A stretch of DNA of 64,000 bases. Source: Phycisphaerae bacterium (GTDB lineage: Bacteria; Planctomycetota; Phycisphaerae; Sedimentisphaerales; Anaerobacaceae). The stretch lies in assembly GCA_017993835.1 (NCBI GenBank), contig JAGOLX010000007.1, positions 82,913 to 146,912 of the forward strand, read 5' to 3'. Under the pieces are notes generated by a model. That model made no database searches and was not told the DNA's origin. It worked only from the letters and a program-made list of their open reading frames with translations. Position 1 is the first letter of the stretch. Each line of letters opens with the position of its first letter. Positions 18,473 through 38,390 of this stretch are shown piece by piece. The translations under genes and the position numbers were made by a program.

Positions 18473-18518
18473 GAACGAACCGTTTTTATCAATCATTGGA
18501 AGTAAAGGAGCCAAGCTC

Positions 18519-19895: not shown

Positions 19896-19930
19896 GCCAA
19901 CCTCGCAACGAGGTGGTTCGCAAGGTTTCC

Positions 19931-19970
19931 AAGCCGGGGCGCCATGCCCGCGCATGGCGCCCGGCTTTGT
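19931..19970 (+). terminator. GC-rich hairpin after oxidoreductase 4
   Basis: AAGCCGG-G-GCGCCATGC (19931-19947) pairs with GCATGGCGCCCGGCTT (19952-19967) with one bulged G, then TTGTT. The short T tract makes it a partial terminator or an RNA-stability element. Confidence 0.5.
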
Positions 19971-20008
19971 TCTCGATGACAAACCGCAAGAAAAGAGGCA
20001 GGGGGATC

Positions 20009-21373
20009 ATGACGAATTCGCAGACGCAGAAATCGGATGATTTGGGCCTGTCACGCCGGAAGTTCGTTGGCGCCGCGGCGGCTGTGGCGGCGTTCACCGC
20101 GGTCCCTCGCCACGTCCTGGGCGGGGCGCGACATGTGGCGCCCAGCGAGAAGCTCAACATCGCAGGCATCGGGATCGGCGGGCGAGGCGAAGGCGACCTC
20201 GACGAGTGCCGGACCGAGAATATCGTCGCGTTGTGCGACGTGGACGAGCGTCATGCGGGCCGGGTGTTCAAGAAGTACCCGGATGCGAGGAAGTGGACGG
20301 ACTTCCGCAAGATGCTCGACGAGCAGAAGGACATCGACGCGGTGGTGATCGCGACGCCGGACCATCTGCACGCGGTGGTTGCGATGGCTGCGATCAAACG
20401 CGGAAAGCACGTCTATTGCGAGAAGCCCCTGACGCACTGCATCTGGGAGGCCCGACAACTGACGCTGGCGGCCCGCGAAGCGAAGGTCGCGACCCAGTTG
20501 GGCAATCAGGGTCAGGCGACCGAGGGCAACCGCCTGGTCTCGGAGTTCATCTGGGACGGTGCGATCGGGCCGGTCCGCGAGGTCCACGCATGGTGCAATC
20601 GGCCCATTTCCCAGCGAGGGATCGGCCGGCCGACGGAGACGCCGGACGTGCCGGCGACGCTGAACTGGGATCTCTGGCTCGGACCCGCGAAGTACCGGCC
20701 GTATCATCCTGTCTATCTGCCCTTCAGTTGGCGAAGCTGGTGGGACTTCGGCACGGGCGTTCTCGGCGACATCGGCTGCCACCAGCTCGACCCCGTCTTC
20801 CGGGCGCTCAAGCTGGGCTATCCCCTCTCGGTCGAAGCCTGCTCGAGCAGCATGGACGAGCCGGCCGCCGTGAAGGAGGAGACGGCTCCGAAGTCGTCCA
20901 TTGTCCGTTTCGAATTCCCTGCCCGCGAGGGGTTCCCGCCTTTGCTGCTGACCTGGTACGACGGCGGCCTGATGCCCCAGCGGCCGGCGGAGCTGGCGGA
21001 GGGATTGAGGTTCGGCGAGGCCGACGACAATCTGTTCATCGGCGACAAGGGCAAGATGCTGGGCTACCGCCTGATCCCGGAGGCCCGGATGAAGGAATAT
21101 GTCAAGCCGCCGCAGAGGATCGAGCGTTCGCCGGGCCACCATAAGGAGTGGCTTGACGCCTGCAGAGGCGGCAAGCCCGCGCGGGCCAATTTCGATTGGG
21201 CGGGACCGCTGACTGAGGTCGTCCTGCTCGGCAACGTCGCCTTGAAGATGGAAAGACAGCTCTATGAGAAAGGCCTCAAGCTCCGCTACGATGGCCCGAA
21301 CATGCAGGTGACCAACCTGCCGGAGGCCAACAAGCACATCCGGGACGAGTACCGCGAAGGGTGGAGCCTCTAG
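20009..21373 (+). CDS. Tat-exported GFO/IDH/MocA oxidoreductase 5
   Basis: The protein is 454 aa from the ATG at 20009 (AGGGGG upstream). The Tat motif is LSRRKFVG (R16-R17) and the signal ends [13 protein letters not shown]. The Rossmann domain starts KLNIAGIGIGGRGEG near residue 48. CEKPLTHCI lies near residue 138 and DIGCHQLDPVFRAL near residue 254. The sequence between these motifs is close to oxidoreductases 6 to 8 (RPYHPVYLPFSWRSWWDFG). It is probably a paralogue for another linkage or sugar. Its stop codon touches the first base of the triple-hairpin repeat at 21373. Confidence 0.88.
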   Translation: MTNSQTQKSDDLGLSRRKFVGAAAAVAAFTAVPRHVLGGARHVAPSEKLNIAGIGIGGRGEGDLDECRTENIVALCDVDERHAGRVFKKYPDARKWTDFRKMLDEQKDIDAVVIATPDHLHAVVAMAAIKRGKHVYCEKPLTHCIWEARQLTLAAREAKVATQLGNQGQATEGNRLVSEFIWDGAIGPVREVHAWCNRPISQRGIGRPTETPDVPATLNWDLWLGPAKYRPYHPVYLPFSWRSWWDFGTGVLGDIGCHQLDPVFRALKLGYPLSVEACSSSMDEPAAVKEETAPKSSIVRFEFPAREGFPPLLLTWYDGGLMPQRPAELAEGLRFGEADDNLFIGDKGKMLGYRLIPEARMKEYVKPPQRIERSPGHHKEWLDACRGGKPARANFDWAGPLTEVVLLGNVALKMERQLYEKGLKLRYDGPNMQVTNLPEANKHIRDEYREGWSL

Positions 21374-21452
21374 TAGCACGGGCATCTTGCCCGTGATTTC
21401 CGAGTCATGGGCGGGACGCCCATGTTACTCATGGGCAAGATGCCCATGCTAC
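21373..21452. repeat. 80-base triple-hairpin palindromic element
   Basis: Three hairpins with 8-bp stems and 3-base loops lie in tandem: CACGGGCA-TCT-TGCCCGTG, CATGGGCG-GGA-CGCCCATG (21406-21424) and CATGGGCA-AGA-TGCCCATG. The outer 24-base arms (21373-21396, 21429-21452) are also complementary to each other with two differences and end GTAG/CTAC. As RNA it could fold either as three hairpins or as one branched stem. Confidence 0.75.
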
Positions 21453-21509
21453 GACGCGTACTGTAACAGAAGGGTCCGTGGCGCAATGACTGATATGAGG
21501 AGTAGTATC

Positions 21510-22868
21510 GTGGAACAGAAGAAGAACATGACACGACGTGACTTCATGGGCGCCGCCGCGGGCGTGGCGGCCTTCACCGTGGTTCCTCGCCATGTGGTTG
21601 CCGGCTCAGGCGGCGCGGCCCCCAGTGAGAAGATCAACATCGCCGGGGTAGGCGTGGGCGGGCAGGGCGGACATGACATCGACCAGCTCAACAGTCAGAA
21701 CATCGTCGCCTTGTGCGACGTGGACTGGCGTCATGCCGCCGGGTGCTTCAAACGGTATCCGAACGCCAAGCAGTACAAGGACTTCCGCGAGATGCTCGAC
21801 AAGGAGGACAAGAACATCGACGGGGTGGTCGTCGGGACGCCGGACCACATGCACGCGATCGTCTCCATGGCCGCCATCAAACGGGGCAAGCACGTCTATT
21901 GCGAGAAGCCTCTGACGCACACCGTCCGCGAGGCCAGGCTCCTGGCCGAGGCCGCTCGCGAAGCCAAGGTCGCCACGCAGATGGGCAACCAGGGCCAGGC
22001 CGGCGACGAGGTCCGCCTGTTGTGCGAGACCATCTGGGACGGCGCGATCGGTCAGGTCCGCGAGGTCCACGTCTGGACGGACCGCCCGCTCAACGGGACG
22101 AACAACTGGTACTGGCCGCAGGGGGTGGGCCGGCCGGGCGGACAAGACCCGGTTCCCGAGGCGCTCGACTGGGATCTCTGGATCGGCCCGGCGCCGATGC
22201 GTCCCTACGTAGGCAACAGGGTCTATCATCCGTTTGTCTGGCGCGGCTGGTGGGATTTCGGCACCGGCGCGTTGGGGGACATCGGCTGCCACAGCCTTTC
22301 GTCCATATTCCGGGCGCTGAAGCTCGGCCACCCCACGAGTGTGGAAGCCTGCTGTACGCTGGTCAACAATGAGACGTACCCGGTGGCGTCGCGCGTGACC
22401 TACGAGTTTCCCGCCCGGGGGGATCTGGCGCCGGTGACGCTGCACTGGTATGACGGCGGGATGAAGCCGCCCCGGCCGGCGGAACTGGGAGCGGGGCGTC
22501 GATGGGATACGAACGGCGCGCTCTTCATCGGCGACAAGGGTAAGATGTACGGCGGCCGCCTGCTGCCGGAGTCGCGACAGAGAGACTATCGCAAGCCGCC
22601 GCAGAAGCTGGAGCGTTCGCCCGGCCACTACATCGAATGGGTCATTGCCTGCAAGGGGGGCAAGCCCGCCGGGTCGAACTTCCCCGACCATGCCGGCCTG
22701 CTGGCCCAGGTGGTTCTGCTGGGCAACGTCGCCCTGCGTCCCGCGCTGAAGGCGGACAAGTACCTGGGGACGAAGCTCCTCTGGGACGGCGACAAGTTCG
22801 AATTCACGAATGTGCCGGAGGCGAATCAGTACCTGACCAAGGAATACCGGGCAGGTTGGGCCATCTGA
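21510..22868 (+). CDS. Tat-exported GFO/IDH/MocA oxidoreductase 6
   Basis: The protein is 452 aa from a GTG at 21510, chosen because GAGGAG lies seven bases before it; ATGs at 21486 and 21495 lack such a site. The Tat motif is MTRRDFMG (R9-R10), followed by [13 protein letters not shown]. The Rossmann domain starts KINIAGVGVGGQGG. CEKPLTHTV lies near residue 132. The active-site segment reads DIGCHSLSSIFRAL near residue 256: the usual second Asp (H-x-x-D) is Ser, unlike the other paralogues. This may change proton transfer or substrate choice. It is otherwise full length and intact. Confidence 0.87.
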   Translation: MEQKKNMTRRDFMGAAAGVAAFTVVPRHVVAGSGGAAPSEKINIAGVGVGGQGGHDIDQLNSQNIVALCDVDWRHAAGCFKRYPNAKQYKDFREMLDKEDKNIDGVVVGTPDHMHAIVSMAAIKRGKHVYCEKPLTHTVREARLLAEAAREAKVATQMGNQGQAGDEVRLLCETIWDGAIGQVREVHVWTDRPLNGTNNWYWPQGVGRPGGQDPVPEALDWDLWIGPAPMRPYVGNRVYHPFVWRGWWDFGTGALGDIGCHSLSSIFRALKLGHPTSVEACCTLVNNETYPVASRVTYEFPARGDLAPVTLHWYDGGMKPPRPAELGAGRRWDTNGALFIGDKGKMYGGRLLPESRQRDYRKPPQKLERSPGHYIEWVIACKGGKPAGSNFPDHAGLLAQVVLLGNVALRPALKADKYLGTKLLWDGDKFEFTNVPEANQYLTKEYRAGWAI

Positions 22869-22885
22869 TTGACGAGGACTGACGG

Positions 22886-24253
22886 ATGATTGATTCCATC
22901 GACAGACGCAGATTCCTGAGCAGCGCGGCGGGGGCGGTCGCGGCTTTCACCGTGGTGCCCAGGCACGTGCTGGGCGGGGCGGGCAGCCAGCCCCCGAGCG
23001 AGAAGCTCAACCTGGCGGCCATCGGCATCGGCGGCATGGGCTCGTCCAACATCAGCCAGTGCAGCAGCGAGAACTTCGTTGCCCTGTGCGACGTCGATGA
23101 CGGGTACGCCGGGAAGGTGTTCAGCAGGTTCCCCAACGCGAGGAAGTACAAGGACTTCCGCGTCATGCTGGACAAGGAAGACAAGAACATCGAAGGCGTC
23201 ATCATCGCGACGCCGGACCACACGCACGGCGTGGTCGCGATGGCCTGCATCCAGCGAGGCAAACACATCTACCTGCAGAAGCCCCTGGCGCACTCGATTT
23301 ATGAGGTTCGCAAGCTCACCGAGGCCGCCCGCGAGGCCAAGGTGCAGACGCAGATGGGCAACCAGGGACATTCCTCCGACGAGATTCGGATGCTCTATGA
23401 GTGGATTCAGGATGGAGCGATCGGTCCGGTCCACGAGGTTTACGCATGGACCGATCGACCGGTCGGCGGCGATCCGTGGTCGGACTTCCCGATCATGGCC
23501 AGACCGAAGGACACGCCGGAAGTGCCCAAGACGCTCGACTGGGACTTGTGGCTCGGTCCCGCCCAGTATCGTCCGTATCATCCGATCTACCACCCCATGT
23601 CCTGGCGGGGATTCTGGGACTTCGGCACCGGCCCTCTGGGCGACATGGGCTGCCACATTGTCGATCCGGCGTTCTGGGTGCTCAATCTCGGTCAGCCCAC
23701 GCGGGTGGAAGCGACCACGACGCACTATCAGCCGGAGGTAGCGTCCGAGACCTATCCGCGGGCCGCGATCATTCGATACGAATTCCCCGCTCGCGGCGAC
23801 ATGCCGCCTGTGAAGCTCACCTGGACCGACGGGCGGCTGATGCCGCCGCGGCCCAGGGAACTGGAGCGCGGCCGCAAGCTGGAGGGCAGCGGCGCGTTGT
23901 TCATCGGCGAGAAGGGCACGATCATGCACGGCTCGCACGGCGCCGGCGGCGTGCGGATCATCCCCGAGACGAAGATGAAAGACTACAAACGGCCTGAGAA
24001 GACTCTCCCGCGAGTCCAAGGCGGTCAGAGCGGCCACGAGCAGGATTGGATCCGCGCCTGCAAGGACGGCAGACCCGCCAGTTCGAGCTTCGAGTACGGC
24101 GGCCCGCTCACGGAGATGGTCCTGCTGGGCGTGCTCGCGATGCGGTTCAAGGACATGCCGCTCGAATGGGACGCGGCGAATTTGAAAGTGACGAATCTGC
24201 CTGAGGCAGAGAAGTATATCCACCCGCCGTTCCGCGACGGATGGAGCCTGTAG
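22886..24253 (+). CDS. Tat-exported GFO/IDH/MocA oxidoreductase 7 (QKP variant)
   Basis: The protein is 455 aa with the Tat signal DRRRFLSSAAG and then [13 protein letters not shown]. It starts 17 bases after oxidoreductase 6, with GAGGACTGACGG before the ATG. The catalytic triad is Q-K-P (LQKPLAHSI, near residue 132) as in oxidoreductase 3. DMGCHIVDPAFWVL lies near residue 253. The C-terminal part (PEKTLPRVQGGQSGHEQDW) is closest to oxidoreductase 3, so these two form a sub-clade inside the array. The last codons encode the F-R-D-G-W-S-L ending shared by most members. Confidence 0.88.
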   Translation: MIDSIDRRRFLSSAAGAVAAFTVVPRHVLGGAGSQPPSEKLNLAAIGIGGMGSSNISQCSSENFVALCDVDDGYAGKVFSRFPNARKYKDFRVMLDKEDKNIEGVIIATPDHTHGVVAMACIQRGKHIYLQKPLAHSIYEVRKLTEAAREAKVQTQMGNQGHSSDEIRMLYEWIQDGAIGPVHEVYAWTDRPVGGDPWSDFPIMARPKDTPEVPKTLDWDLWLGPAQYRPYHPIYHPMSWRGFWDFGTGPLGDMGCHIVDPAFWVLNLGQPTRVEATTTHYQPEVASETYPRAAIIRYEFPARGDMPPVKLTWTDGRLMPPRPRELERGRKLEGSGALFIGEKGTIMHGSHGAGGVRIIPETKMKDYKRPEKTLPRVQGGQSGHEQDWIRACKDGRPASSSFEYGGPLTEMVLLGVLAMRFKDMPLEWDAANLKVTNLPEAEKYIHPPFRDGWSL

Positions 24254-24365
24254 AAATTTGCTATTTACGATTGACAATTGACCATTTGTGGGTGCTGTGT
24301 GCACGCTCGCGAGGACAGGCTCGACCGAGTGGGCAAGACATGCTTCTGATTGAGAGGGCTGTACA
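24254..24365. repeat. Spacer with GATTGACAATTGACC-type repeat and a GTGCTGTGTGCACGC remnant
   Basis: The start of the spacer contains ATTTACGATTGACAATTGACC, related to the GATTGA-rich spacers at 25681 and 32198. Next comes GGGTGCTGTGTGCACGC, which looks like a damaged half of the palindrome at 11827. No gene is present. Confidence 0.4.
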
Positions 24366-25679
24366 GTGAAAGAGACGCGAATGAATCGAAGACAGTTCCT
24401 GGGCAGTGCGGCCGCGGTGGCGGCGTTCACGATCGTGCCGCGACATGTGCTGGCCGGGTCCGGGCAGACCCCGCCCAGCGAGAAACTCAATATCGCCTGC
24501 GTCGGCATCGGCGGCCAGGGCGCCAGCGACATCAACGACGTCAGCAGCGAGAACATCGTCGCTCTGTGCGATGTCGACTGGAGCAATCACACCGCGGGGA
24601 CCTTCCGGAGGTTCCCCAATGCCAGGAAGTACAAGGACTTCCGCAAGATGCTCGATGCGGAGGACAAGAACATCGACGCCGTGACGGTTGCGACGCCCGA
24701 CAACATCCACGCCGTGGCGGCCATGGCTGCGATGAAGCATGGCAAGCACGTCTATTGCGAGAAACCTCTGTGCCACGACGTGTATGAAGTCCGCCAGCTC
24801 ACGGAAGCCGCCCGCAAGTACAAAGTCGTCACGCAGATGGGCACGCAGATCCACGGCACCGCGGAAATGAAGCTGTTCGTGGAGATCGTGCATTCCGGCG
24901 TGATCGGCAAGGTCCACAAGGTGGATCTCTGGAGCGGCAAAAACTGGGGCGGCGGCGAGCGCCCGACGGACACGCCTCCTGTGCCCGAGACGCTGGACTG
25001 GGATCTGTGGCTCGGACCCGCGCCGTACCGTCCCTATCATCCGTGCTATCTGCCGGGCCAGTGGCGACGATGGCTCGATTTCGGGACGGGCACGCTGGGC
25101 GACATGGGCTGCCATATCATCGACCCCGCCTGGTGGGCGCTGGATCTAGGGCACCCGACGAGCATATCTGCCACGCCGGGACCGTTCAGCAAGGAGACAT
25201 ATCCCCAGAAGACGATCATCACCTGGGAGTTCAAGGCCAGCGGCGACAGGCCGGCGCTGACGGTGAGCTGGTACGACGGCGAGAATGCTCCGCCGCGACC
25301 GCCGCAACTGGAGTCCAATCGGAAAATGCCCGATCAGGGCGGCGTCTACTACGGCGACAAGGGCACCATCCTGTACCCGCACTGCGGCAGCCCGCGTCTG
25401 ATCCCGGAGACGGCGATGAAGGGATTCAAGGTGCCGGAGCCGACCTTCGACCGCACCGCGAACCACTACCAGGACTGGATCCGCGGCTGCAAAGGGGGCC
25501 CCAAACCCCTGTCGAACTTCGACTACGCAGGTCCGCTGACCGAAGCGATCCTGCTCGGCAACGTCGCGGCCTTCGCGGGGCAGAAGCTCGAATGGGACGG
25601 CGCGAACATGAAGGTGACGAACCTGCCCGAGGCGAACAAGTTCCTCCGTCGGACCTACCGCGAGGGCTGGAGCCTGTAG
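24366..25679 (+). CDS. Tat-exported GFO/IDH/MocA oxidoreductase 8
   Basis: The protein is 437 aa, the second shortest of the nine. The GTG at 24366 follows GAGAGG at a usable distance; an ATG at 24381 is the alternative and would start MNRRQFLG. The Tat motif is NRRQFLG, then AAFTIVPRHVLAG. CEKPLCHDV lies near residue 133 and DMGCHIIDPAWWAL near residue 246. The segment after the first motif (MGTQIHGTAEMKLFVEIVHSG) differs from the NQGH or NQGQ form of its neighbours, pointing to a different substrate. An exported TIM-barrel/DUF1080 fusion gene follows. Confidence 0.87.
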   Translation: MKETRMNRRQFLGSAAAVAAFTIVPRHVLAGSGQTPPSEKLNIACVGIGGQGASDINDVSSENIVALCDVDWSNHTAGTFRRFPNARKYKDFRKMLDAEDKNIDAVTVATPDNIHAVAAMAAMKHGKHVYCEKPLCHDVYEVRQLTEAARKYKVVTQMGTQIHGTAEMKLFVEIVHSGVIGKVHKVDLWSGKNWGGGERPTDTPPVPETLDWDLWLGPAPYRPYHPCYLPGQWRRWLDFGTGTLGDMGCHIIDPAWWALDLGHPTSISATPGPFSKETYPQKTIITWEFKASGDRPALTVSWYDGENAPPRPPQLESNRKMPDQGGVYYGDKGTILYPHCGSPRLIPETAMKGFKVPEPTFDRTANHYQDWIRGCKGGPKPLSNFDYAGPLTEAILLGNVAAFAGQKLEWDGANMKVTNLPEANKFLRRTYREGWSL

Positions 25680-28681: not shown

Positions 28682-28710
28682 TTGACAGCGGTTTTCGTCA
28701 CCTCCATAAT
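28682..28710 (+). promoter_or_regulatory. Near-consensus sigma70-type promoter
   Basis: TTGACA (28682-28687), a 17-base spacer and CATAAT (28705-28710): 11 of 12 consensus bases. It should drive oxidoreductase 9 and the cytochromes from about 28717. Confidence 0.75.
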
Positions 28711-28839: not shown

Positions 28840-30195
28840 ATGAGCGAGTCGAAAGCACAATCGGGCATCGATAGACGCAGTTTCCTGCGTTCCACCGCAG
28901 CAGTCGGCGCCGGTCTGGCCTTTGCCCCGCGGATGTTCGCGGCGGCCACTGGCGGCGAGAAGGACATCAACGTCGCCCTGCTCGGCGCCGGCGCTGAGGG
29001 GCAGATCCTCATGGAAGCCTGCCTCAAGATCCCCAACGTCAAGTTCAAGGCCGTCTGCGACATCTGGGAGAGCTATAACCAGAAGCGCGTGGCCAACCTG
29101 CTGCGCCGGTATCAGCACGAGTGCAGCACCTATGTCGATTACAAGGAAATGCTCGACAAGGAGAAGGGCAAGATCGACGCGGTCATCATTGCAACGCCGG
29201 ACTTCTGGCACGCCGAGCACGCGATTGCCTGTATGGAAGCCGGGCTCGACGTGTATTGCGAGAAGGAGATGTCCAACGACCTGGGCAAGGCCAGGCAAAT
29301 GGTCGAAGCCCAGAAGAAGACGGGCAAGCTCCTGCAGATCGGCCACCAGCGGCGCAGCAATCCGCGGTACCTGCACTGCTACAACAAGGTCCTGAAGGAG
29401 GCCAAGATGCTCGGCCGGATCACCACGGTCAACGGACAGTGGAACCGCGGGGTCCAGGAGCCTTTGTCCTCCCCTCCGAAGTACGCGATCGACGAAGCGA
29501 CCCTGACCAAGTACGGCTTCAGCTCGATGGAGCAGTTCCGGAACTGGCGGTGGTATAAGAAACTGGGCGGCGGTCCCATCGTGGATCTCGGCTCGCACCA
29601 GATCGACATCTACTCCTGGTTCCTCAATGCACTACCGAAGGGCGTCATCGCCAGCGGCGGCACGGACTACTACGACAAGAACACCCACGAGTGGTACGAC
29701 ACGGTCATGTCCATCTTTGATTTCGAGACGAAGGAAGGCGTCGTCCGAGCGTACTACCAGGTGCTGACGACCAACAGCAACCAGGGGTACTTCGAGACAT
29801 TCATGGGCGACCAGGGCTCGCTGGTGATTTCGGAATCCGCGTCGCGTGGTTCGGTCTACCGCGAGCAGAGCGCCCAGGTTGAGTGGGACAAGTGGGTCAA
29901 GCTCGGCTTCGTGAACGAGCCCAAGAAGGAAGAGAAGAAGGCGGACGCGACGACCGCGGCCCTGGATGTCCGCGAAACGCTCGCGCCTCCGGCCTACGAG
30001 ATTCCGGTGAAGATGGACGGCATCCCCTACCATCTGCCGCACTTGGCGAACTTCTTCAATGCCATGAGAGGCAAAGAGAAGCTCAACTGCCCGGCCGAGG
30101 TCGGATACGAGACCGCCGTCATGGTGCTCAAGGTCAACGAGGCCGTCGAGGCCGCCAAGAGGCTCGAGTTCAAGCCCGACGAATTCAAGGTCTAA
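28840..30195 (+). CDS. Tat-exported GFO/IDH/MocA oxidoreductase 9 (EKE variant)
   Basis: The protein is 451 aa from the ATG at 28840 (AGAGGT just upstream). The Tat motif is IDRRSFLR (R12-R13). It is the outlier of the family here: the catalytic segment is YCEKEMSN near residue 142 (Glu in place of Pro after the Lys), the active-site segment is DLGSHQIDIYSW near residue 249, and there is a charged insert PKKEEKKADATT near residue 367. It has its own promoter and operator-like sites and is followed by the cytochrome pair, so it may be the member that passes electrons onward. That role is inference from position. Confidence 0.85.
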   Translation: MSESKAQSGIDRRSFLRSTAAVGAGLAFAPRMFAAATGGEKDINVALLGAGAEGQILMEACLKIPNVKFKAVCDIWESYNQKRVANLLRRYQHECSTYVDYKEMLDKEKGKIDAVIIATPDFWHAEHAIACMEAGLDVYCEKEMSNDLGKARQMVEAQKKTGKLLQIGHQRRSNPRYLHCYNKVLKEAKMLGRITTVNGQWNRGVQEPLSSPPKYAIDEATLTKYGFSSMEQFRNWRWYKKLGGGPIVDLGSHQIDIYSWFLNALPKGVIASGGTDYYDKNTHEWYDTVMSIFDFETKEGVVRAYYQVLTTNSNQGYFETFMGDQGSLVISESASRGSVYREQSAQVEWDKWVKLGFVNEPKKEEKKADATTAALDVRETLAPPAYEIPVKMDGIPYHLPHLANFFNAMRGKEKLNCPAEVGYETAVMVLKVNEAVEAAKRLEFKPDEFKV

Positions 30196-30277
30196 GACCG
30201 GTCTTGTCGGCGCCTCTTTGCATCGGAAGTCAGTTCCCGGCCCAACGCCGGGAGAGTAGAAAGGAACTGATACAGCC

Positions 30278-32197
30278 TTGAAACGAAGACTGATTGCAGC
30301 GCTTATCGTGTCGTTGGTGCTGTCGGCGAGTCTCCTTGCCGCCGAGGAAGCTGCGAAGCTCCTCGGGGATGAGAGCGACGGGAGCCGGGCGCATCCGATT
30401 CACCGGATTCCGCTGTTCTCCGAGAGTGAGAAAGGCGAGAAAGGCCCGCAGATCGATCCGAACGATCCGCTGGCGATGCCGTTCTCGACTCGGTTCACCT
30501 GCGGGGAGTGTCACACCTACGGGGCGATCAGCAAGGGCTGGCATTTCAGCTCGCTGGACAGCAACGTCCCCGCCGGCCGTCCGGGCGAGCCGTGGTTGTA
30601 CTTCAATTCGAAGCTGGGCATTCAACTGCCGTTGTCCTATCGGGCCTGGCCGGGCGCGTACCGTCCGGAGCAGTTCGGGCTGTCCCTTGCGGAGTTCACC
30701 AAGATCTTCGCGAGGCACATGCCGGGCGGCGGTCCCGGAGAGGCCACTCCGTCGGATGCCGAGGCGCGCGCCAACCAATACGTCACGGGAAAACTGGAGG
30801 CCAACTGCCTGGCGTGCCACAATGCGCACCCGGGCCAGGACCAGGGCGGCGCCGACGGCTACGCCATCCAGGTGAGCAAGACGAACTTCCGCTGGGCGGC
30901 TGCTGCTTCCTGCGAGTTTGCGGATGTCAGCGGTTCGGTGACGGACGCGGGTCCGACGTACGATCCCTTCATGCCCGATGAGACCGAAGAGAAGGCGCCT
31001 CGCACGTCGTATGACAAGAAGGCGTTCGACGCTAAGGGCAACGTCTTCATGGAGATCGTGCGAGAGGCGCCGAAGCAGCGGTGCTACTTCTGCCACAGCG
31101 ATCTGTTCTGCGGGGAGAACGACGAGAAGACCGAGAAGTGGTGTGCCGACGAGGACATCCACATGACCGCCGGGCTCACCTGCGTGGACTGCCATCGCAA
31201 CGGCTTGGATCACAACATCGTCCGAGGCTATGAGGGCGAAACGGCCGATTCCGCCAATCCGATGGCTGCGACGACCTCCTGTCGCGGCTGCCATCTGGGC
31301 GACGAGAACGGCAACCGGGAAACCGGGGGGCGGCTGGGAGCGCCGGTGCCTTTGCACAAGGGCATCCCGACCGTTCACTTCGAGCGGCTGACCTGCACGG
31401 CGTGTCATTCCGGTCCCTGGCCGACCGACAAGCCCGTGCTGGCCAAGACGTCGCGGGCGCACCGCCTGGGAACGATCAACGTGCCCAAGGAGCCGCGTGT
31501 CCTGCCGCACGTCTGGGCGCCGGTATTCGTCAAGGAAGCTGTGGCCGACCCCAACAGCACAGCCAAGATCGGTCCGCACAAGCTCGTCTGGCCTTCCTTC
31601 TGGGGCACGGTGGACGCGAACGACGTTGTCAAACCCGTCGAGCTGGCCGTGGTCACCGACGTGGTCGGCGCGGCGCTGAAGGATCTCCCTGTTGCTGCTA
31701 CAGGCGACTGGAGCGAGCTGAAAGAAGAGCAGATCGGCCAGGTGCTGAAGGCCCTGGGCGAATCGGGCCAGCAGAAGCCCGTCTACATCACCGGCGGCAT
31801 GTTGTTCGAGCTGGACGACGCGGGCGCTGTGACGAGTCGGGCGGATCATCCGGCTGCGGCGCCCTATGCTTGGGCAATGGCCCACAACGTCCGGCCTGCG
31901 GCGCAGTCGCTGGGCGTCGGCAAGTGTACGGTCTGCCACTCGACGAACTCCGCGTTCTTCTTCGGCCAGGTGGCGGTCGATTCGCCCGTCGCTTCGGTGA
32001 GCAGTCTGACGAAGACACAGTATGAATTCCAGAAGGCGTCGCACGCCCGGACGTGGTTCTTCGCCTTCTCCTTCCTCTTCCGCCCGTGGTTCAAGGTCGT
32101 GGCGATTGGCGCGACCGCCGTGATTGGCATCATCCTGCTGCTGTACGGGCTCAAGGCGCTGGGTGCGGTTGCCAAGGTATTGTCCGAGCAAGAATGA
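30278..32197 (+). CDS. Membrane-anchored seven-haem cytochrome c
   Basis: The protein is 639 aa from a TTG at 30278, with AAAGGA upstream. It has a Sec signal peptide (residues 1-21). Seven CxxCH haem sites are present: CGECH (~75), CLACH (~178), CYFCH (~269), CVDCH (~303), CRGCH (~335), CTACH (~373) and CTVCH (~551). One transmembrane helix near the C-terminus (VVAIGATAVIGIILLLYG) anchors the periplasmic haem domain. Such proteins carry electrons between the quinone pool and outside partners. With the cytochrome b gene next door it probably forms a two-subunit complex. I do not recognise a specific catalytic family such as nitrite or tetrathionate reductase. Confidence 0.82.
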   Translation: MKRRLIAALIVSLVLSASLLAAEEAAKLLGDESDGSRAHPIHRIPLFSESEKGEKGPQIDPNDPLAMPFSTRFTCGECHTYGAISKGWHFSSLDSNVPAGRPGEPWLYFNSKLGIQLPLSYRAWPGAYRPEQFGLSLAEFTKIFARHMPGGGPGEATPSDAEARANQYVTGKLEANCLACHNAHPGQDQGGADGYAIQVSKTNFRWAAAASCEFADVSGSVTDAGPTYDPFMPDETEEKAPRTSYDKKAFDAKGNVFMEIVREAPKQRCYFCHSDLFCGENDEKTEKWCADEDIHMTAGLTCVDCHRNGLDHNIVRGYEGETADSANPMAATTSCRGCHLGDENGNRETGGRLGAPVPLHKGIPTVHFERLTCTACHSGPWPTDKPVLAKTSRAHRLGTINVPKEPRVLPHVWAPVFVKEAVADPNSTAKIGPHKLVWPSFWGTVDANDVVKPVELAVVTDVVGAALKDLPVAATGDWSELKEEQIGQVLKALGESGQQKPVYITGGMLFELDDAGAVTSRADHPAAAPYAWAMAHNVRPAAQSLGVGKCTVCHSTNSAFFFGQVAVDSPVASVSSLTKTQYEFQKASHARTWFFAFSFLFRPWFKVVAIGATAVIGIILLLYGLKALGAVAKVLSEQE

Positions 32198-32206
32198 ACA
32201 CATTGA

Positions 32207-32262
32207 TGATTGATAGAGGATGATGGATGATTGTCAATCATCCATCGGCAATCATCCATAAT
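32207..32262. repeat. GATTGATAGAGGATGATGG-type spacer with perfect palindrome
   Basis: GATGGATGATTG (32222-32233) and CAATCATCCATC (32235-32246) form a 12-bp perfect palindrome with a single-base centre, flanked by further GATTGA and AATCATCCAT copies. It belongs with the spacers at 24266 and 25681 and lies between the two cytochrome genes. Confidence 0.5.
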
Positions 32263-32282
32263 CCATTGAATGGGTAATCGGG

Positions 32283-32933
32283 ATGTTTCAAACGGTTGCG
32301 ATCCTAGCTCTCCTGGTGACATTCATCGGCATCGCTCTGCACTGGGTCCTGACCCCGACGGGGGGGGCGCGATGCCCGCTCAGCGGCGCGGTCCATGTCT
32401 TCAGTCTGCTGCTCGTCGAGCAGAAGTCGAGCCTGCTGGGCGCGTTGAAGAAGCTCTGCTATCTCGTCGCGATGGTCTGCTTTCTGGTTCTGGCCTTCAC
32501 CGGGTTCTGGCCGACGCTCGTCCATGGGGAGCATATCTCCGGGTTCCTCATGTACATCCACGCGACGTTTGCCCCGGTCTTTGCGTTGTGTCTGGCGATC
32601 CTGGCGATCACCTGGGCGGGCAGCAACCGGTTCAGCTTCGCGGATGCCCCCTGGCTGACGCGGCTGCTCCGACGCGTGACGAGCCTCCGCGTCCCGGTCG
32701 ATGACCGCCCCTGGCGCTGCTCGCTGGCGGTGTACAAGCTGGCCTTCTGGGCGATCCTGTTCCTGGCGCTGCCCCTGGTCTTGTCCATCGTGGTCAGCAT
32801 GTTCCACCTGCTGGGCACCGATTGGCAGTACTTCACGCTGGCGGCGCATCGGTGGATCAGCCTGGTCTTTGCGATTGCGGTGATTGTCCATACTTACTTG
32901 GCGATACGACTGCGGATGGCGTGCCGCGACTAG
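32283..32933 (+). CDS. Integral membrane cytochrome b-type subunit (NarI/b561-like)
   Basis: The protein is 216 aa with about five transmembrane helices. Histidines suitable as haem b ligands are in helix 1 (ALHWVL), helix 3 (GFLMYIHATFAP) and the last helix (LAAHRWISLVFAIAVIVHTYL, with two His 13 residues apart on one helix). This layout resembles NarI or formate-dehydrogenase gamma subunits, which exchange electrons between quinol and a periplasmic partner. It follows the seven-haem cytochrome gene by 85 bases, and the pair is most likely a quinone-linked electron-transfer module for the locus. The direction of electron flow cannot be told. Confidence 0.72.
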   Translation: MFQTVAILALLVTFIGIALHWVLTPTGGARCPLSGAVHVFSLLLVEQKSSLLGALKKLCYLVAMVCFLVLAFTGFWPTLVHGEHISGFLMYIHATFAPVFALCLAILAITWAGSNRFSFADAPWLTRLLRRVTSLRVPVDDRPWRCSLAVYKLAFWAILFLALPLVLSIVVSMFHLLGTDWQYFTLAAHRWISLVFAIAVIVHTYLAIRLRMACRD

Positions 32934-33106: not shown

Positions 33107-34507
33107 ATGAGTAATGGAACGTTGCCAAGTTACCTGAGTATGGCCAAAGCCAATCCGCCCACCAACCGGGCGCCGTGGTACAAGAACACCGCACCAACCT
33201 ACGCGGGCATCTTCCTGTGGTTTGCATTCTGGATGCAGGCTCCCAGCGGGGGTACGATGGGACCCGGCACAACCGGGGTTCCAGGTGGCCTGTTGTCTCA
33301 AGGAATCGGAGTTGCTCTTCTCGGCCTGATCGTCGCAGCGCTGCTGTGCCATTTCCTCTTCTACTACGTTCCGGGCATGCTTGGTCTCAAGACAGGTTTG
33401 CCACTGTACGTCGTTGGCACCTCGACGTACGGAACCCAGGGTGGTTTTCTCATGCCGGGTTTCCTGATGGGAGTCCTGCAGTTCGGCTGGCTCGGTGTCA
33501 ATGCCTATTTCTCTTCGCAGGCGCTGGCGCCCCTTGTTGGCGGCAACGTTGTGGCTGTGAAGATCCTGGCGGTTATCTGGGCGGTTCTGGCTGCATTCGT
33601 CGGGCTCAAGGGGATTCAGTACGTAGCAAAGGTTGCCACGTTCCTGCCCTTGATACCCCTGGCTGCTCTGCTGATTCTCCTGGTGAAGACGCTGGGCGGC
33701 ATAAGCAGTTTTGACCCTGAGAAGTACGTGGCGGCAGGCGTCCTTGCAGAGAAGGGCGGCGCCGGTCTCGGCTTCCTCGGCGTAATCGCGCTGAGTATGA
33801 CATATGTCATCGGATTCTTCGCTACAGCCGGTGCTGCGGGCGTGGATTTTGGAACTGGAAGCCGGGATGCGAAAGATGTTCAGATGGGTGGCTTGGTCGG
33901 TATCGCGGTGGCCACGATCATATCGGCTGGAATCGCCGTTCTGATTGGTGCCGGGGCTTTTGGAAAGACCGGGACCTACGCTGTGAATCCTGCTGATCCT
34001 GGGTTCATGGGAAGTGTCCTGGGGTCTACTGGGGCTGGCGCCGTGGTGGGTGTGTTGCTGGCCGTTGCGGCTTTCCCGTCTGCCTGCTTCTCATCCCTTA
34101 TCGCAGCCAACAGCTTCAAGACTGTGATGCCGAAGGTGAATCCTTTCATCTCCGTGAGCGTTGGTGCCGCAGTCAGCGTCCTGCTGGCCGTAACCGGCTG
34201 GGCAGGCAAGGCAGGAAGTGTCTTCACGGTTATTGGTGCCTCTTTCGGACCCATCTGCGGCGCCATGCTGGTGGACTACTACCTGTCCGGCCAGAAATGG
34301 GCCGGTCCGCGTCAGGGCTGGAACCTGGCGGGCTGGATCTCCTGGGCTGTCGGCTTCATGGTCGGAATTGCGCCTCTCGTCAAGATCGCTAATGTCCCGG
34401 CGGCACCCTTGATGGCCTTCATCGTCGGCGCCGTCGTGTACTTCGTCCTGGCCAAGGCAGGTTTGCAGCCGCCTGTGGTTCCGATGCCCACCGCTGAGTC
34501 GAAGTAA
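33107..34507 (+). CDS. NCS1-type permease (cytosine/purine/allantoin family)
   Basis: The protein is 466 aa. TTAAGGAGAG precedes the ATG at 33107. It has about twelve hydrophobic helices. The N-terminal APWYKNTAPTYAGIFLWFAFW and the GLPLYVVGTSTYGTQGGF segment match the style of NCS1 transporters such as CodB, which import cytosine or related nitrogen compounds with Na+ or H+. The exact substrate is not clear; no deaminase or hydantoinase gene is adjacent. The third-base usage is less GC-rich than in the neighbouring genes. A strong terminator follows, so it forms its own unit. The 173-base upstream gap contains a GCCGGGCC/GGCCCGGC hairpin but no known riboswitch. Confidence 0.75.
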   Translation: MSNGTLPSYLSMAKANPPTNRAPWYKNTAPTYAGIFLWFAFWMQAPSGGTMGPGTTGVPGGLLSQGIGVALLGLIVAALLCHFLFYYVPGMLGLKTGLPLYVVGTSTYGTQGGFLMPGFLMGVLQFGWLGVNAYFSSQALAPLVGGNVVAVKILAVIWAVLAAFVGLKGIQYVAKVATFLPLIPLAALLILLVKTLGGISSFDPEKYVAAGVLAEKGGAGLGFLGVIALSMTYVIGFFATAGAAGVDFGTGSRDAKDVQMGGLVGIAVATIISAGIAVLIGAGAFGKTGTYAVNPADPGFMGSVLGSTGAGAVVGVLLAVAAFPSACFSSLIAANSFKTVMPKVNPFISVSVGAAVSVLLAVTGWAGKAGSVFTVIGASFGPICGAMLVDYYLSGQKWAGPRQGWNLAGWISWAVGFMVGIAPLVKIANVPAAPLMAFIVGAVVYFVLAKAGLQPPVVPMPTAESK

Positions 34508-34560: not shown

Positions 34561-34597
34561 GCAGGGATTCGGGGATTCTCGAATCCCTGCTTTTTTT
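34561..34597 (+). terminator. Rho-independent terminator after the permease
   Basis: GCAGGGATTCG (34561-34571) pairs perfectly with CGAATCCCTGC (34580-34590) and is followed by seven T. It is one of the clearest terminators in the window. Confidence 0.9.
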
Positions 34598-34772: not shown

Positions 34773-35657
34773 ATGAGAAAGAAGTCCGATTCCATGATGA
34801 AAGCAGTCTTTGTAGTGGCTTTGACGGCCCTGCTGTGTCTGGGCATGTCGTGCAAGAAACAGCCCGACCCGGCGCCGAGTCAGCCTGCGGCCAAGGATAC
34901 CCAAGCGAAGCCCGCCGAGGCGAAACCGGCTGAGGTAGAACCGGCGGAAGTGAAGCCGGCGGAGACCCCTGCCCAGCCGACGGTGACGGAAGCCGCGAAA
35001 CCTGCGGAAACAACCCCGGCTCCCGCTCCCGCCCAGGCGGCGGCTCCTGCGGGCTATGCGCCCCTCGCCCTCGAGCTGCCCAAGCCGATGTTCGTCGGCA
35101 CGCCGCAGGACATGAAGGTGGACAACCTGGAGAAGCCGCTGGGAAGGGCCCGCCCGCCGTTCCTGGCCCCCGCGGGCGCCGCTCTGCTGTCCAGGGGCAA
35201 GCCCGTCTCCGCCAGCGATGAAGAGCCCATCATCGGCGAGATCGAGATGATCACCGATGGCGACAAGGAAGCCGCCGACGGCAGCTACGTCGAGCTCGGA
35301 CCCCTGATGCAGTACGTGACCATCGATCTCGAGAAGCAGTGCGAGCTGTACGCCATCGTGGTGTGGCACTATCACAAGCAGCCCCGCGTGTACCACGATG
35401 TGGTCATCCAACTGTCGAACGACAAGGACTTCATCACGGACGTCAAGACGGTCTTCAACAACGACACCGACAACTCCTCGGGTCAGGGCATCGGCAAAGA
35501 CATGCACTACGTCGAGACCAACGAGGGTAAGCTGATCGACCTGGTTTCGCAGGGCAGCCCGAAGGCCCGCTACATCCGTCTGTACAGCAATACGAACACG
35601 AGCAACGACCTGAACCACTACATCGAGGTCGAAGCTTTCGGCAAGCCGGTGGAATGA
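34773..35657 (+). CDS. Probable lipoprotein with PAE-rich linker and discoidin-like domain
   Basis: The protein is 294 aa; the ATG at 34773 has GAGG upstream. The signal sequence ends LGMSC-KK, so the Cys near residue 27 may be lipidated, though the lipobox is not perfect. Residues 30-100 are a low-complexity linker with repeated K-P-A-E and P-A-E-V units, fit to span the envelope. Residues 130-294 resemble an F5/8 type C (discoidin) fold: SASDEEPIIGEIEMITDGDKEAADGSY, then strands to ARYIRLYSN. Such domains bind sugars or proteins. The membrane glycosyltransferase gene overlaps its stop by four bases (ATGA), so the two are coupled. Confidence 0.7.
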   Translation: MRKKSDSMMKAVFVVALTALLCLGMSCKKQPDPAPSQPAAKDTQAKPAEAKPAEVEPAEVKPAETPAQPTVTEAAKPAETTPAPAPAQAAAPAGYAPLALELPKPMFVGTPQDMKVDNLEKPLGRARPPFLAPAGAALLSRGKPVSASDEEPIIGEIEMITDGDKEAADGSYVELGPLMQYVTIDLEKQCELYAIVVWHYHKQPRVYHDVVIQLSNDKDFITDVKTVFNNDTDNSSGQGIGKDMHYVETNEGKLIDLVSQGSPKARYIRLYSNTNTSNDLNHYIEVEAFGKPVE

Positions 35658-37444
35658 CAACGGTACGGATGGGGAATAGCCCTTGGGTCGCGTGGCTTCG
35701 TCATCCCTTCACTTGCGCTTCATTCGGGACGACAGCCGGCGTGGGCGGGGCGACCCGGATCCCCACGACGTGCCTGGATCGAGCCTCGCACGGTCAGAGG
35801 CTCAGGCTATTCTGGTTCTGGATTTTCATCGCGGCGCTCGGAGCGTTGGCGTTCCGAGCGCCGCGTCTTTCCATGCGGCCGATGCACACCGACGAGGCCG
35901 TCCACGCCGACAAATTCGGCACGCTCCTCGAATACGGAACGTATGAGTATGACCCCCACGAGTACCACGGTCCCACGCTCAATTACTTCACGCTGATCCC
36001 CGCCTGGCTGGGTCGCGAACGCACGTACACGGAAGTCACCGAGTTCACGCTGCGCATCGTGCCTGTGGTCTGGGGCACGATCCTCGTTGTGCTGATCGCG
36101 GGCCTGTCGCGAGGTCTCGGATGGGCGGCGCTGGCAGCGGCGGTCCTGGCGGCCTTCTCGCCGGCGATGGTCTTCTACAGCCGGTACTACATCCAGGAGA
36201 TGCTGCTGGCCAGTTTCACGCTGGGCGTCATCGTCTGTGGATATCGCTACGTGCGGACGAGATCGCTCGTCTGGGTTCTGGCGACAGGCGGATTCGCGGG
36301 ACTGATGCACGCCACGAAAGAGACTGCGATTATCGCATTCGGCTCGATGGTGCTGGCGCTGGCTCTCGTGGTACTGACCCAGTCGGGCGCGGACCGACGG
36401 CGCGTCCTCGCCGGCGTCAACTGGCTCCACGTCCTGTTGGGCGTCGTCGCCGCGGCGGTCGTTTCGGCCCTGCTGTTCTCCGTCTTTCTCCGTCGTCCCG
36501 CAGGCATTTTCGACTCCTACCGCACGTACGCGACGTACTTCGGTCGGGCAGGGGGACAGGACACCGCGCACGTGCATCCGTGGTATTATTACCTGCAGAT
36601 CCTCCTCTATGCTCGATATGCCCACGGCCCGATCTGGACCGAAGCCTGGATCGTTCTGCTGGCGGTCGTGGGTCTGGCGCCCGTGGTGAGAGGGGCACAG
36701 GTCGGACGGATCGATCGCAAGCTCGTGCGATTCGTCGCGATCTACACCCTCGCGATGACCGTCCTCTACTCGGCAATTCCCTACAAGACGCCGTGGTGCC
36801 TGTTGAGCTTCCTGACCGGCCTGATTCTGCTGGCGGGCGTCGGGATGGTGACGCTCTGGACCTGGGCGAGAACACCCGTCCATCGCGGTCTCGTGGCAAT
36901 GCTGGCGGTGGCCGCGGTGGGGCATCTGGCGTTTCTGTCGTACCGCGCGAACTTCGTATATTCCTCCGACTGCCGCAATCCCTATGTGTATGCCCACCCC
37001 ACGGACGAGATCTTCACCGCGGTGAAGATCGTCCAGGAGTACGCCGCGACGACGGGTGTAGGCCGATCCGAGGACCGGCCGATCCAGGTCGCAGTCCCGG
37101 GCAAGGACTACTGGCCGCTTCCCTGGTACTTTCGAGACCTCTTTGTCGGATATACGTCCGAGATCCCGAGCGAAGTGGGGCCGCTGATACTGCTTTCGGA
37201 CCAGCTCGAGGGCGCCCTCCAGCGCCGGATCTACGAGGAGACGCCCCGCGAGCAGCAGTGGCTGCCGATGTACCTGTTTGACAAGCCGTACTACATCTGG
37301 TTCAGGCCGGGAGTGAAGCTGACGGGATTCGTTCGCAAAGACCTCTGGGACGAGAACGCGGCCCGCCAGTCGGACGCCGCGGCATTGATCGAGGCAAGCC
37401 ATGACAGACAAGACCCGCCCAGCGGAGACGCAGTTCGTCCATAG
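35654..37444 (+). CDS. TIGR03663-type membrane glycosyltransferase (PMT-like)
   Basis: The protein is 596 aa with about ten transmembrane helices. The catalytic loop after helix 1 reads MHTDEAVHADKFG near residue 77, where the D-E pair corresponds to the metal/sugar site of dolichyl-phosphate-mannose-protein mannosyltransferases. YSRYYIQEM near residue 175 and the YHGPTLNY loop fit the TIGR03663 family. It should move a sugar from a polyprenyl phosphate donor to a protein or polymer outside the membrane. The N-terminal 45 residues before the first helix are unusually polar, so the true start could be later. It overlaps both neighbours. Confidence 0.72.
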   Translation: MTTVRMGNSPWVAWLRHPFTCASFGTTAGVGGATRIPTTCLDRASHGQRLRLFWFWIFIAALGALAFRAPRLSMRPMHTDEAVHADKFGTLLEYGTYEYDPHEYHGPTLNYFTLIPAWLGRERTYTEVTEFTLRIVPVVWGTILVVLIAGLSRGLGWAALAAAVLAAFSPAMVFYSRYYIQEMLLASFTLGVIVCGYRYVRTRSLVWVLATGGFAGLMHATKETAIIAFGSMVLALALVVLTQSGADRRRVLAGVNWLHVLLGVVAAAVVSALLFSVFLRRPAGIFDSYRTYATYFGRAGGQDTAHVHPWYYYLQILLYARYAHGPIWTEAWIVLLAVVGLAPVVRGAQVGRIDRKLVRFVAIYTLAMTVLYSAIPYKTPWCLLSFLTGLILLAGVGMVTLWTWARTPVHRGLVAMLAVAAVGHLAFLSYRANFVYSSDCRNPYVYAHPTDEIFTAVKIVQEYAATTGVGRSEDRPIQVAVPGKDYWPLPWYFRDLFVGYTSEIPSEVGPLILLSDQLEGALQRRIYEETPREQQWLPMYLFDKPYYIWFRPGVKLTGFVRKDLWDENAARQSDAAALIEASHDRQDPPSGDAVRP

Positions 37445-38390
37445 CGACTGGGCGGCTGTGTCCGGCGTACACCGCTTCTCGCACCAGGCGATGGCGACCA
37501 CGTTCGAGGTAAGAGTCCAGCACGAGGACCGCACCTATGCCCAGCAGGCCGCGGCGGCCGCGTTCGATGAGGTCGATCGCATCGAAGGCGTCCTGAGCCG
37601 GTACCTGGAGTCCAGCGATGTGACGCAGATCAACCACCTGCCCGCGGGCACACCCGTACACATTGCGCTGGACACCTTCGAGTGCCTGCGAATCAGCGCC
37701 GAGATGCACTCGCAGACGGGCGGGGCATTCGATGTCACCGTGGGGTTCCTCATCGATTGCTGGCGGGACGAGGAGAAAAGGCCGCGAACGCCGTCGGCCG
37801 AGGAACTGCAGTTTGCCCTCGACCACACCGGCACGGATCTGATCCTGCTCGACGAACCGACGTGCGCCGTGGCTCTGCTGGCTAGTCCCCTGCGGATCGA
37901 CCTGGGCGGCGTGGGCAAGGGCTACGCGGTGGATCGGATGGCCGAGATGCTGAAGGAGTGGGATATCGATCGCGCGTTGATTCACGGTGGGTTCAGCTCG
38001 GTACTGGCCATCGAGCCTCCCGTCGGCATGGAGGGTTGGCCTGTCACGCTCAGTCATCCGAGGGATCGCAGCCGAACGCTCGCCCGGCTTTCTCTGTCGC
38101 ACGGTTCCGTGAGCGGCTCCGGCGTCGAGAAGGGCCAGCATATCATCGACCCGCGCACCGGCCGGCCCGTCGAGGGCAAGCTGGCGACTTGGTCGGTAGC
38201 GCCCGACGCTGCCTGCGCGGACGCCCTCTCCACCGCCTTCATGGTGATGACGGCGGCGGAGGTGGCAGACTACTGTCGCGACCATTCCGATGTCCGCGGA
38301 TTGCTCATTCTGCCGGAGGATGCCGGAACTGGTCGAGCGGAGCAAATCGTGCCTGTCGGGACGTGGGGGGCAGGGGAACTCCTCCTGTGA
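37401..38390 (+). CDS. apbE: FAD:protein FMN transferase (ApbE family)
   Basis: The protein is 329 aa and begins 44 bases inside the end of the upstream gene. Family marks are MATTFEVRV near residue 31, the FDVTVGFLIDCW segment, DLGGVGKGYAVDRMAEML near residue 172, HGGFSSVLAIE near residue 195, and the metal-binding HIIDPRTGRPVEG near residue 250 with ADALSTAFMV. ApbE proteins attach FMN to a Thr/Ser of electron-transfer subunits such as RnfG or NqrC. No lipoprotein signal is visible, unlike many ApbE proteins, so this one may act in the cytoplasm. No target subunit is encoded in the window. Confidence 0.9.
   Translation: MTDKTRPAETQFVHSDWAAVSGVHRFSHQAMATTFEVRVQHEDRTYAQQAAAAAFDEVDRIEGVLSRYLESSDVTQINHLPAGTPVHIALDTFECLRISAEMHSQTGGAFDVTVGFLIDCWRDEEKRPRTPSAEELQFALDHTGTDLILLDEPTCAVALLASPLRIDLGGVGKGYAVDRMAEMLKEWDIDRALIHGGFSSVLAIEPPVGMEGWPVTLSHPRDRSRTLARLSLSHGSVSGSGVEKGQHIIDPRTGRPVEGKLATWSVAPDAACADALSTAFMVMTAAEVADYCRDHSDVRGLLILPEDAGTGRAEQIVPVGTWGAGELLL

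What the first reader, a model, noticed from the sequence alone, without database searches (positions are those of the whole stretch)
28840..32933. Seven-haem cytochrome c and cytochrome b placed directly after an oxidoreductase: possible electron outlet for sugar oxidation
The gene at 30278 has seven CxxCH sites and a C-terminal anchor, and the next gene is a NarI/b561-like membrane subunit. They follow oxidoreductase 9, which has its own promoter. If exported MocA enzymes keep their cofactor bound, they need a way to re-oxidise it; a haem chain to the quinone pool would do this. To my knowledge MocA enzymes are not normally linked to cytochromes.
Basis: inference. Interest (0 to 1): 0.7.

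Follow-up and report, generated by a model that had tools for sequence, protein, structure and literature searches.

The report
Sugar oxidoreductase wired to seven-haem cytochrome
In a large group of mostly uncultured sediment bacteria, an enzyme predicted to oxidise sugars outside the cell membrane is almost always made together with a dedicated seven-haem electron-carrying protein and a membrane cytochrome, which suggests an undescribed electron path in bacteria that appear to lack the usual quinone carriers.

Summary
OR9 (28840-30195) is a Tat-exported MocA-family oxidoreductase. Cyt7 (30278-32197) has seven CxxCH sites, seven further invariant His (enough for bis-His haems) and a C-terminal anchor; cytb (32283-32933) is b561-like. 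A sigma-70-type promoter before OR9 is conserved in 19 of 23 orthologous loci; a strong terminator follows the next gene, a permease. Of 40 loci sampled from the order without regard to neighbours, 36 have OR9 within 1.1 kb upstream of cyt7 and all 40 have a cytb downstream. Beyond the order, other MocA plus ApbE genes adjoin distant cyt7 relatives, and one genome has an unrelated eight-haem cytochrome in cyt7's place. Exported MocA and haem proteins very probably work together. The proposed destination, the quinone pool, is not supported: 87 of 110 cyt7-bearing genomes, including this one and 16 of 17 near-complete ones, lack MqnA/D and MenD. Ten genomes keep OR9 without cyt7, so the outlet is not obligatory. 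Electron direction, final acceptor and the role of the linked ApbE are untested. I found no description of a MocA-multihaem module in the library searched. Verdict: new variant of a known kind (periplasmic dehydrogenase plus cytochrome).

The parts
28682..28710 (+). sigma-70-type promoter of the OR9 unit (TTGACA-17-CATAAT)
   Evidence: 11 of 12 consensus match; at least 10 of 12 upstream of OR9 in 19 of 23 orthologous loci, 2% in shuffles
28840..30195 (+). OR9: Tat-exported Gfo/Idh/MocA-family oxidoreductase (451 aa); glycine motif, EKE (not EKP) and DLGxHQID conserved
   Evidence: PF01408 66.6 bits, Tat signal; alignment A2; AF2 pLDDT 84.5 with MocA folds as best PDB matches
30278..32197 (+). 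cyt7: exported, membrane-anchored seven-haem cytochrome c
   Evidence: seven CxxCH; Cytochrome_C7/c3 domain; seven motif His plus seven invariant distal His; single copy in genome
30500..30514 (+). haem 1 site CGECH (the others start at 30806, 31082, 31181, 31280, 31394 and 31925)
   Evidence: sequence, invariant in alignment A1
32042..32188 (+). C-terminal helix of cyt7, including its membrane anchor
   Evidence: model helix residues 589-637, sequence
32283..32933 (+). cytb: b561-like membrane cytochrome; H93 and H189 conserved, H20 and H203 in many relatives
   Evidence: PF01292 31.7 bits; His counts and presence downstream of cyt7 in 40 of 40 loci
33107..34507 (+). permease (distant NCS1/allantoin-permease-like), last gene of the unit; an MFS transporter takes its place in some relatives
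   Evidence: NF008476 39 bits, far below cut-off; neighbourhoods
34561..34590 (+). intrinsic terminator closing the OR9-cyt7-cytb-permease unit
   Evidence: 13-pair stem then TTTTTTT
34773..35657 (+). ned: F5/8C-like lipoprotein, start of a second conserved unit (probable start; open frame from 34599)
   Evidence: PF22633 sub-threshold; within 5 kb of cyt7 in 31 of 40 loci
35654..37444 (+). Agl23-type glycosyltransferase
   Evidence: TIGR03663 171 bits, cut-off 126
37401..38390 (+). ApbE: FAD:protein FMN transferase, recurrent partner of the module
   Evidence: PF02424 192 bits; one of two apbE genes in the genome; OR9-apbE-cyt7 order in L077 and L114

Best explanation
OR9, cyt7 and cytb form one transcription unit that makes a periplasmic redox module. 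OR9 is exported folded, with its NAD-type cofactor, by Tat. Cyt7 is a bis-His seven-haem wire anchored in the inner membrane, and cytb is its membrane partner. Most likely OR9 oxidises a sugar or glycoside product of this BT2158-like 3-keto-sugar locus, and its reduced cofactor is re-oxidised by cyt7, possibly through a flavin put in place by the linked ApbE. The destination of the electrons is probably not a home-made menaquinone pool in most hosts: it could be an external acceptor, the cytosolic side through cytb, or a scavenged quinone. Shown: gene content, conserved promoter and order, conserved haem ligands, replacement of the cytochrome, absence of known menaquinone genes. Inferred: electron transfer between OR9 and cyt7, its direction, the role of the flavin, the substrate.
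For: OR9 is within 1.1 kb upstream of cyt7 in 36 of 40 loci of the order; those neighbours are 42-89% identical to OR9 and only 24-31% to the next-best window MocA protein. The pair co-occurs in 104 genomes, with 6 cyt7-only, 10 OR9-only and 39 with neither. The promoter is conserved in 19 of 23 loci, with a terminator after the permease. Cytb lies downstream in 40 of 40. Outside the order, OR9 sits next to cyt7 in L108, L110, L112 and L113, with apbE between them in L114; non-OR9 MocA plus apbE lie beside distant cyt7 relatives in L115, L119-L121, L123, L124 and L127. G064 has an unrelated 8-haem cytochrome 28 bp after OR9, then apbE. Seven invariant distal His fit full bis-His ligation. Another MocA lies upstream in 31 of 40 loci and a DUF1080-type protein in 26. 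Precedent: purified D3dgpA (a MocA enzyme) holds near-equimolar NAD(H) and its bound NADH is re-oxidised by a second sugar (PMC11239390); BT2158 is a periplasmic glycoside 3-dehydrogenase (PMC11300592).
Against: No biochemical evidence that any MocA enzyme passes electrons to a haem; a hydride-to-haem step needs a one-electron mediator, and no conserved ApbE target motif was found in the cluster. Two genomes keep OR9-permease-ned-agl23-apbE but lack cyt7 and cytb; other OR9-only genomes keep OR9 with a transporter, and solitary OR9 paralogues have no cytochrome. The order lacks known quinone pathways in most members, so the usual acceptor is missing. Gene linkage can reflect shared regulation, not contact, and related genomes are not independent.
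Confidence: 0.5

Rival explanations
1. Cyt7-cytb is a respiratory reductase of the octahaem tetrathionate reductase/NrfA superfamily that takes electrons from the membrane and reduces an external inorganic compound. Its place beside MocA genes reflects co-regulation, not electron exchange.
For: Best structural match is 1sp3, Shewanella octahaem cytochrome c (Z 6.9 over 320 residues, next row 4.9); weak sequence match to NrfA (E 2.5e-4). A membrane cytb partner is usual for such reductases (general knowledge).
Against: All seven haems can be bis-His ligated, leaving no obvious open catalytic haem. Known quinone pathways are missing in most carriers. The linkage with MocA outlasts changes of most other neighbours and recurs with different MocA genes.
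Confidence: 0.2
2. Electrons run the other way: reductant from the cell passes through cytb and cyt7 to OR9, which reduces keto-sugars outside the membrane as an electron sink for fermentation.
For: The order is described as strictly fermentative (PMC11266412) and mostly lacks quinone genes; MocA reactions are reversible and D3dgpA reduces 3-oxo-glucose.
Against: Known cytb partners exchange electrons with quinones, which seem absent; there is no candidate cytosolic donor in the cluster; the locus is catabolic in content (MocA, DUF1080, TIM-barrel genes).
Confidence: 0.15
3. OR9 is a self-recycling NAD enzyme (like GFOR, or NAD-dependent glycosidases) with no net electron output; the cytochromes only rescue wrongly reduced enzyme or serve the ApbE/ned unit.
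For: OR9 exists without cyt7 in ten genomes and in solitary paralogues; GFOR, DgpA and NAD-dependent glycosidases are among the closest folds.
Against: Conserved promoter-led clustering with cyt7 in most genomes and an independent pairing with another multihaem cytochrome.
Confidence: 0.15

Closest known systems
Periplasmic dehydrogenase-cytochrome pairs (FAD/GMC glucoside 3-dehydrogenase with cytochrome c; PQQ alcohol dehydrogenases), from general knowledge
   Same: An exported sugar or alcohol dehydrogenase encoded with a dedicated haem acceptor, re-oxidised outside the cytosol
   Different: Here the catalytic subunit is an NAD-type MocA protein and the acceptor a 7-haem bis-His cytochrome with a b-type partner
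BT2158-type periplasmic glycoside 3-dehydrogenase locus of Bacteroides (NF058561)
   Same: Exported MocA enzymes; the upstream MocA genes of the window score up to 573 bits and sit with DUF1080 and TIM-barrel genes
   Different: OR9 scores only 82 bits; the paper read on BT2158 mentions no cytochrome
D3dgpA/DgpA and glucose-fructose oxidoreductase
   Same: MocA fold; D3dgpA is purified with bound NAD(H) and works ping-pong
   Different: Their NAD(P)H is re-oxidised by a second sugar, not by a cytochrome
Octahaem tetrathionate reductase (1sp3) and NrfA
   Same: Distant fold and motif similarity of cyt7
   Different: Seven haems, all with candidate bis-His ligation, plus a C-terminal anchor and a MocA neighbour
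ApbE-linked extracytosolic electron transfer (eLife 2021, PMC8238504)
   Same: apbE placed with extracytosolic redox genes; flavin and cytochrome interchangeable in some respiratory systems
   Different: No [ST]GA[ST] target found here; MocA is not mentioned in that paper

Membership tests
Gfo/Idh/MocA oxidoreductases (PF01408) | Rossmann domain above the Pfam cut-off, with glycine motif and catalytic Lys and His | tested here: met
   66.6 bits against 24; G49, G51, K142, D249 and H253 invariant, G54 nearly so, in 35 orthologues; EKE replaces EKP
BT_2158 glycoside 3-dehydrogenase (NF058561) | score at or above 750 bits | tested here: not met
   OR9 82 bits; upstream MocA genes up to 573 bits, also below
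Prokaryotic cytochrome b561 (PF01292) | score above the gathering cut-off | tested here: met
   31.7 against 30.1 bits, only just
Prokaryotic cytochrome b561 (PF01292) | four His ligands for two haems b | tested here: inconclusive
   H93 in 29 and H189 in 32 of 36 rows, H203 in 21, H20 in 18
Formate dehydrogenase gamma subunit (TIGR01583) | score above cut-off | tested here: not met
   23.7 against 115.85 bits
Octahaem tetrathionate reductase | eight haems | tested here: not met
   seven CxxCH in cyt7
Octahaem tetrathionate reductase/NrfA superfamily | shared fold | tested here: inconclusive
   1sp3 Z 6.9 over 320 residues; Foldseek alone found nothing at E<=0.001
ApbE flavin transferase (PF02424) | score above cut-off | tested here: met
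   192 bits against 25.6
ApbE-flavinylated systems | conserved [ST]GA[ST] target in a neighbouring exported protein | tested here: not met
   no conserved motif in OR9, cyt7, cytb, ned, permease or agl23
Quinone-reducing respiratory module | host can make menaquinone by a known pathway | tested here: not met
   own genome has no MqnA/D and no MenD above cut-off; 87 of 110 carriers have neither
Sugar dehydrogenase-cytochrome pair | dehydrogenase reduces the cytochrome | not testable with these tools
   needs purified proteins

The most novel reading that the evidence does not exclude
A MocA-family NAD enzyme, exported with its cofactor, is wired to a haem chain, with a covalently bound flavin as the two-electron to one-electron step, in bacteria without quinones; the chain delivers sugar electrons to an external or cross-membrane acceptor. 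That would be a new class of sugar-linked electron export.
Probability: 0.3. Interest if true: 0.8.

Novelty: new variant of a known kind. Interest (0 to 1): 0.62.

Why it matters
How periplasmic MocA sugar dehydrogenases, found in gut and sediment bacteria, re-oxidise their cofactor is largely open; the solution known from the papers read here is transfer to a second sugar. This conserved operon names concrete proteins to test. It also questions the picture of these Planctomycetota as purely fermentative, because most carry a conserved, promoter-driven c- and b-type cytochrome module without genes for menaquinone.

Tried and rejected
Foldseek with the cyt7 model gave only chance matches, mostly proteasome chains; the second look gave 1sp3. 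phmmer of cyt7 against the PDB found nothing. The idea that OR9-only genomes had lost cytochromes in general was rejected: 9 of the 10 still have a cytochrome c assembly hit, all but G013. An ApbE target inside the cluster was sought and not found. The EKE motif as a mark of cytochrome coupling was rejected: solitary OR9 paralogues have it, and the cytochrome-linked MocA of L115 and L121 have EKP. My first OR9 profile held one wrong row (the 2069-aa neighbour in L076), so its hit in L076 is false; order-level OR9 counts are from the clean profile, and the OR9 hits that I cite also match the independent MocA profile. Paper searches for MocA with multihaem cytochromes found no such system, but the library lacks most subscription journals. 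I could not look for the module outside Planctomycetota beyond one genome-contig scan, which returned only Planctomycetota.
Full report
What is there. The window is contig C17:82913-146912 of a 6.37 Mb, 99% complete genome. The three genes are as described: OR9 (28840-30195), cyt7 (30278-32197) and cytb (32283-32933), followed by a permease (33107-34507). A promoter-like site (TTGACA-17-CATAAT) lies at 28682-28710 and a 13-pair hairpin with seven T at 34561-34590. The same promoter type stands upstream of OR9 in 19 of 23 orthologous loci, against 2% in shuffled sequence. I therefore read OR9-cyt7-cytb-permease as one transcription unit. A second unit (ned, agl23, apbE) follows and is also conserved.

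Proteins. OR9 keeps the MocA glycine motif, the catalytic lysine (in EKE rather than EKP) and the DLGxHQID motif in 35 aligned sequences, and a twin-arginine signal. Its model (pLDDT 84.5) matches DgpA, inositol dehydrogenase, NAD-dependent glycosidases and GFOR. It is not a BT2158-type enzyme (82 bits against a cut-off of 750), whereas several upstream MocA proteins of the window reach 447-573 bits. Cyt7 keeps all seven CxxCH and seven further fully invariant His (42, 89, 295, 312, 360, 367, 536), enough for bis-His ligation of every haem. That fits a wire better than an enzyme, but does not prove it. Its model (pLDDT 79) resembles Shewanella octahaem tetrathionate reductase (Z 6.9 over 320 residues, clear of the next row), and a profile finds NrfA weakly. 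In two relatives the first haem motif is CX3CH or CX4CH. Cytb keeps two His in most sequences and a second pair in about half.

Conservation. Cyt7 is single-copy here and present in 110 of 161 genomes of the order. I read 40 loci chosen for contig length, not for neighbours. With a clean OR9 profile, OR9 lies within 1.1 kb upstream in 36 of 40, in 35 of them directly and once with apbE between. Of the other four, L048 and L069 hold runs of N near this place, and L048 still shows an OR9 fragment. A cytb follows in all 40. Other MocA genes lie upstream in 31 and a DUF1080-type protein in 26. Over 159 genomes OR9 and cyt7 occur together in 104, cyt7 alone in 6, OR9 alone in 10, neither in 39 (relatedness inflates the apparent significance). 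Across the phylum (35 of 392 genomes), OR9 is again next to cyt7 in four loci outside the order and separated only by apbE in L114; one family and L115 have a non-OR9 MocA plus apbE, mostly with a sulfatase-modifying-factor-like gene, beside a distant 7-haem relative.

Natural experiments. G064 carries an unrelated 8-haem cytochrome 28 bp after OR9, then apbE: an independent pairing of OR9 with a multihaem protein. Against this, G012 and G013 keep OR9-permease-ned-agl23-apbE without cyt7 and cytb, other genomes keep OR9 with a transporter only, and solitary OR9 paralogues have no cytochrome. So the link is common but not obligatory.

Where the electrons go. MqnA/MqnD occurs in 18 and MenD above cut-off in 13 of 159 genomes; 87 of 110 cyt7 carriers, and 16 of 17 that are at least 97% complete, have neither, while one family of the same order (f5) has MqnA/D in nearly all members, which serves as a positive control. 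This genome also lacks cydA. A published survey calls Sedimentisphaerales strictly fermentative (PMC11266412); that this order is Sedimentisphaerales is my inference from genome sizes and record titles. Cytochrome c assembly genes are detected in 103 of the 110 carriers. A haem chain to the quinone pool is thus unlikely in most hosts unless quinone is scavenged or made by an unknown route.

Mechanism. The best reading is a periplasmic redox module in which OR9, exported with its cofactor, is re-oxidised by cyt7. Precedent for bound NAD recycled in place by MocA enzymes is good (D3dgpA, PMC11239390) and a periplasmic MocA dehydrogenase is known (BT2158, PMC11300592). The step from hydride to haem needs a mediator; the recurrent ApbE (one of two in the genome) suggests a covalent flavin, but no target motif was found. 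Direction is inferred from the catabolic setting only; the reverse flow and an OTR-like reductase remain open.

Novelty. Sugar and alcohol dehydrogenases paired with cytochromes are known, but with flavin or PQQ enzymes (general knowledge). I found no report of a MocA enzyme so paired in the library searched, which is incomplete. I call it a new variant of a known kind.

Noticed in passing
window 17126-25679: Upstream MocA genes score 447-573 bits with NF058561 (BT2158-type glycoside 3-dehydrogenase), with DUF1080 and TIM-barrel genes nearby: a large 3-keto-glycoside locus; the genome has 78 MocA matches.
   Followed up: partly
L130:6912-9437: OR9 followed at 28 bp by an unrelated 8-haem cytochrome and then apbE, in a genome without cyt7.
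   Followed up: partly
L115, L119, L120, L121, L123, L124, L127: A distant 7-haem cyt7 relative lies near a non-OR9 MocA gene and apbE, mostly with a sulfatase-modifying-factor-like gene between: another arrangement of MocA, apbE and multihaem cytochrome.
   Followed up: partly
order-wide: Most genomes of the order have c-type cytochrome assembly genes and a multihaem cytochrome but no known menaquinone pathway.
   Followed up: partly
L061 and L062, cyt7: First haem motif is CX3CH (CGGVCH) or CX4CH (CGGPDCH) instead of CxxCH; in L061 the cytb is also a different, longer b-type protein.
   Followed up: no
window 34773-38390: ned-agl23-apbE form a second conserved unit after the terminator; why an Agl23-type glycosyltransferase and a discoidin-like lipoprotein accompany a redox module is unexplained.
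   Followed up: no
own genome G000 C18:67808 and C68:40656: FMN_bind domains in open frames of about 1280 aa, candidate flavinylated proteins far from the cyt7 locus.
   Followed up: no
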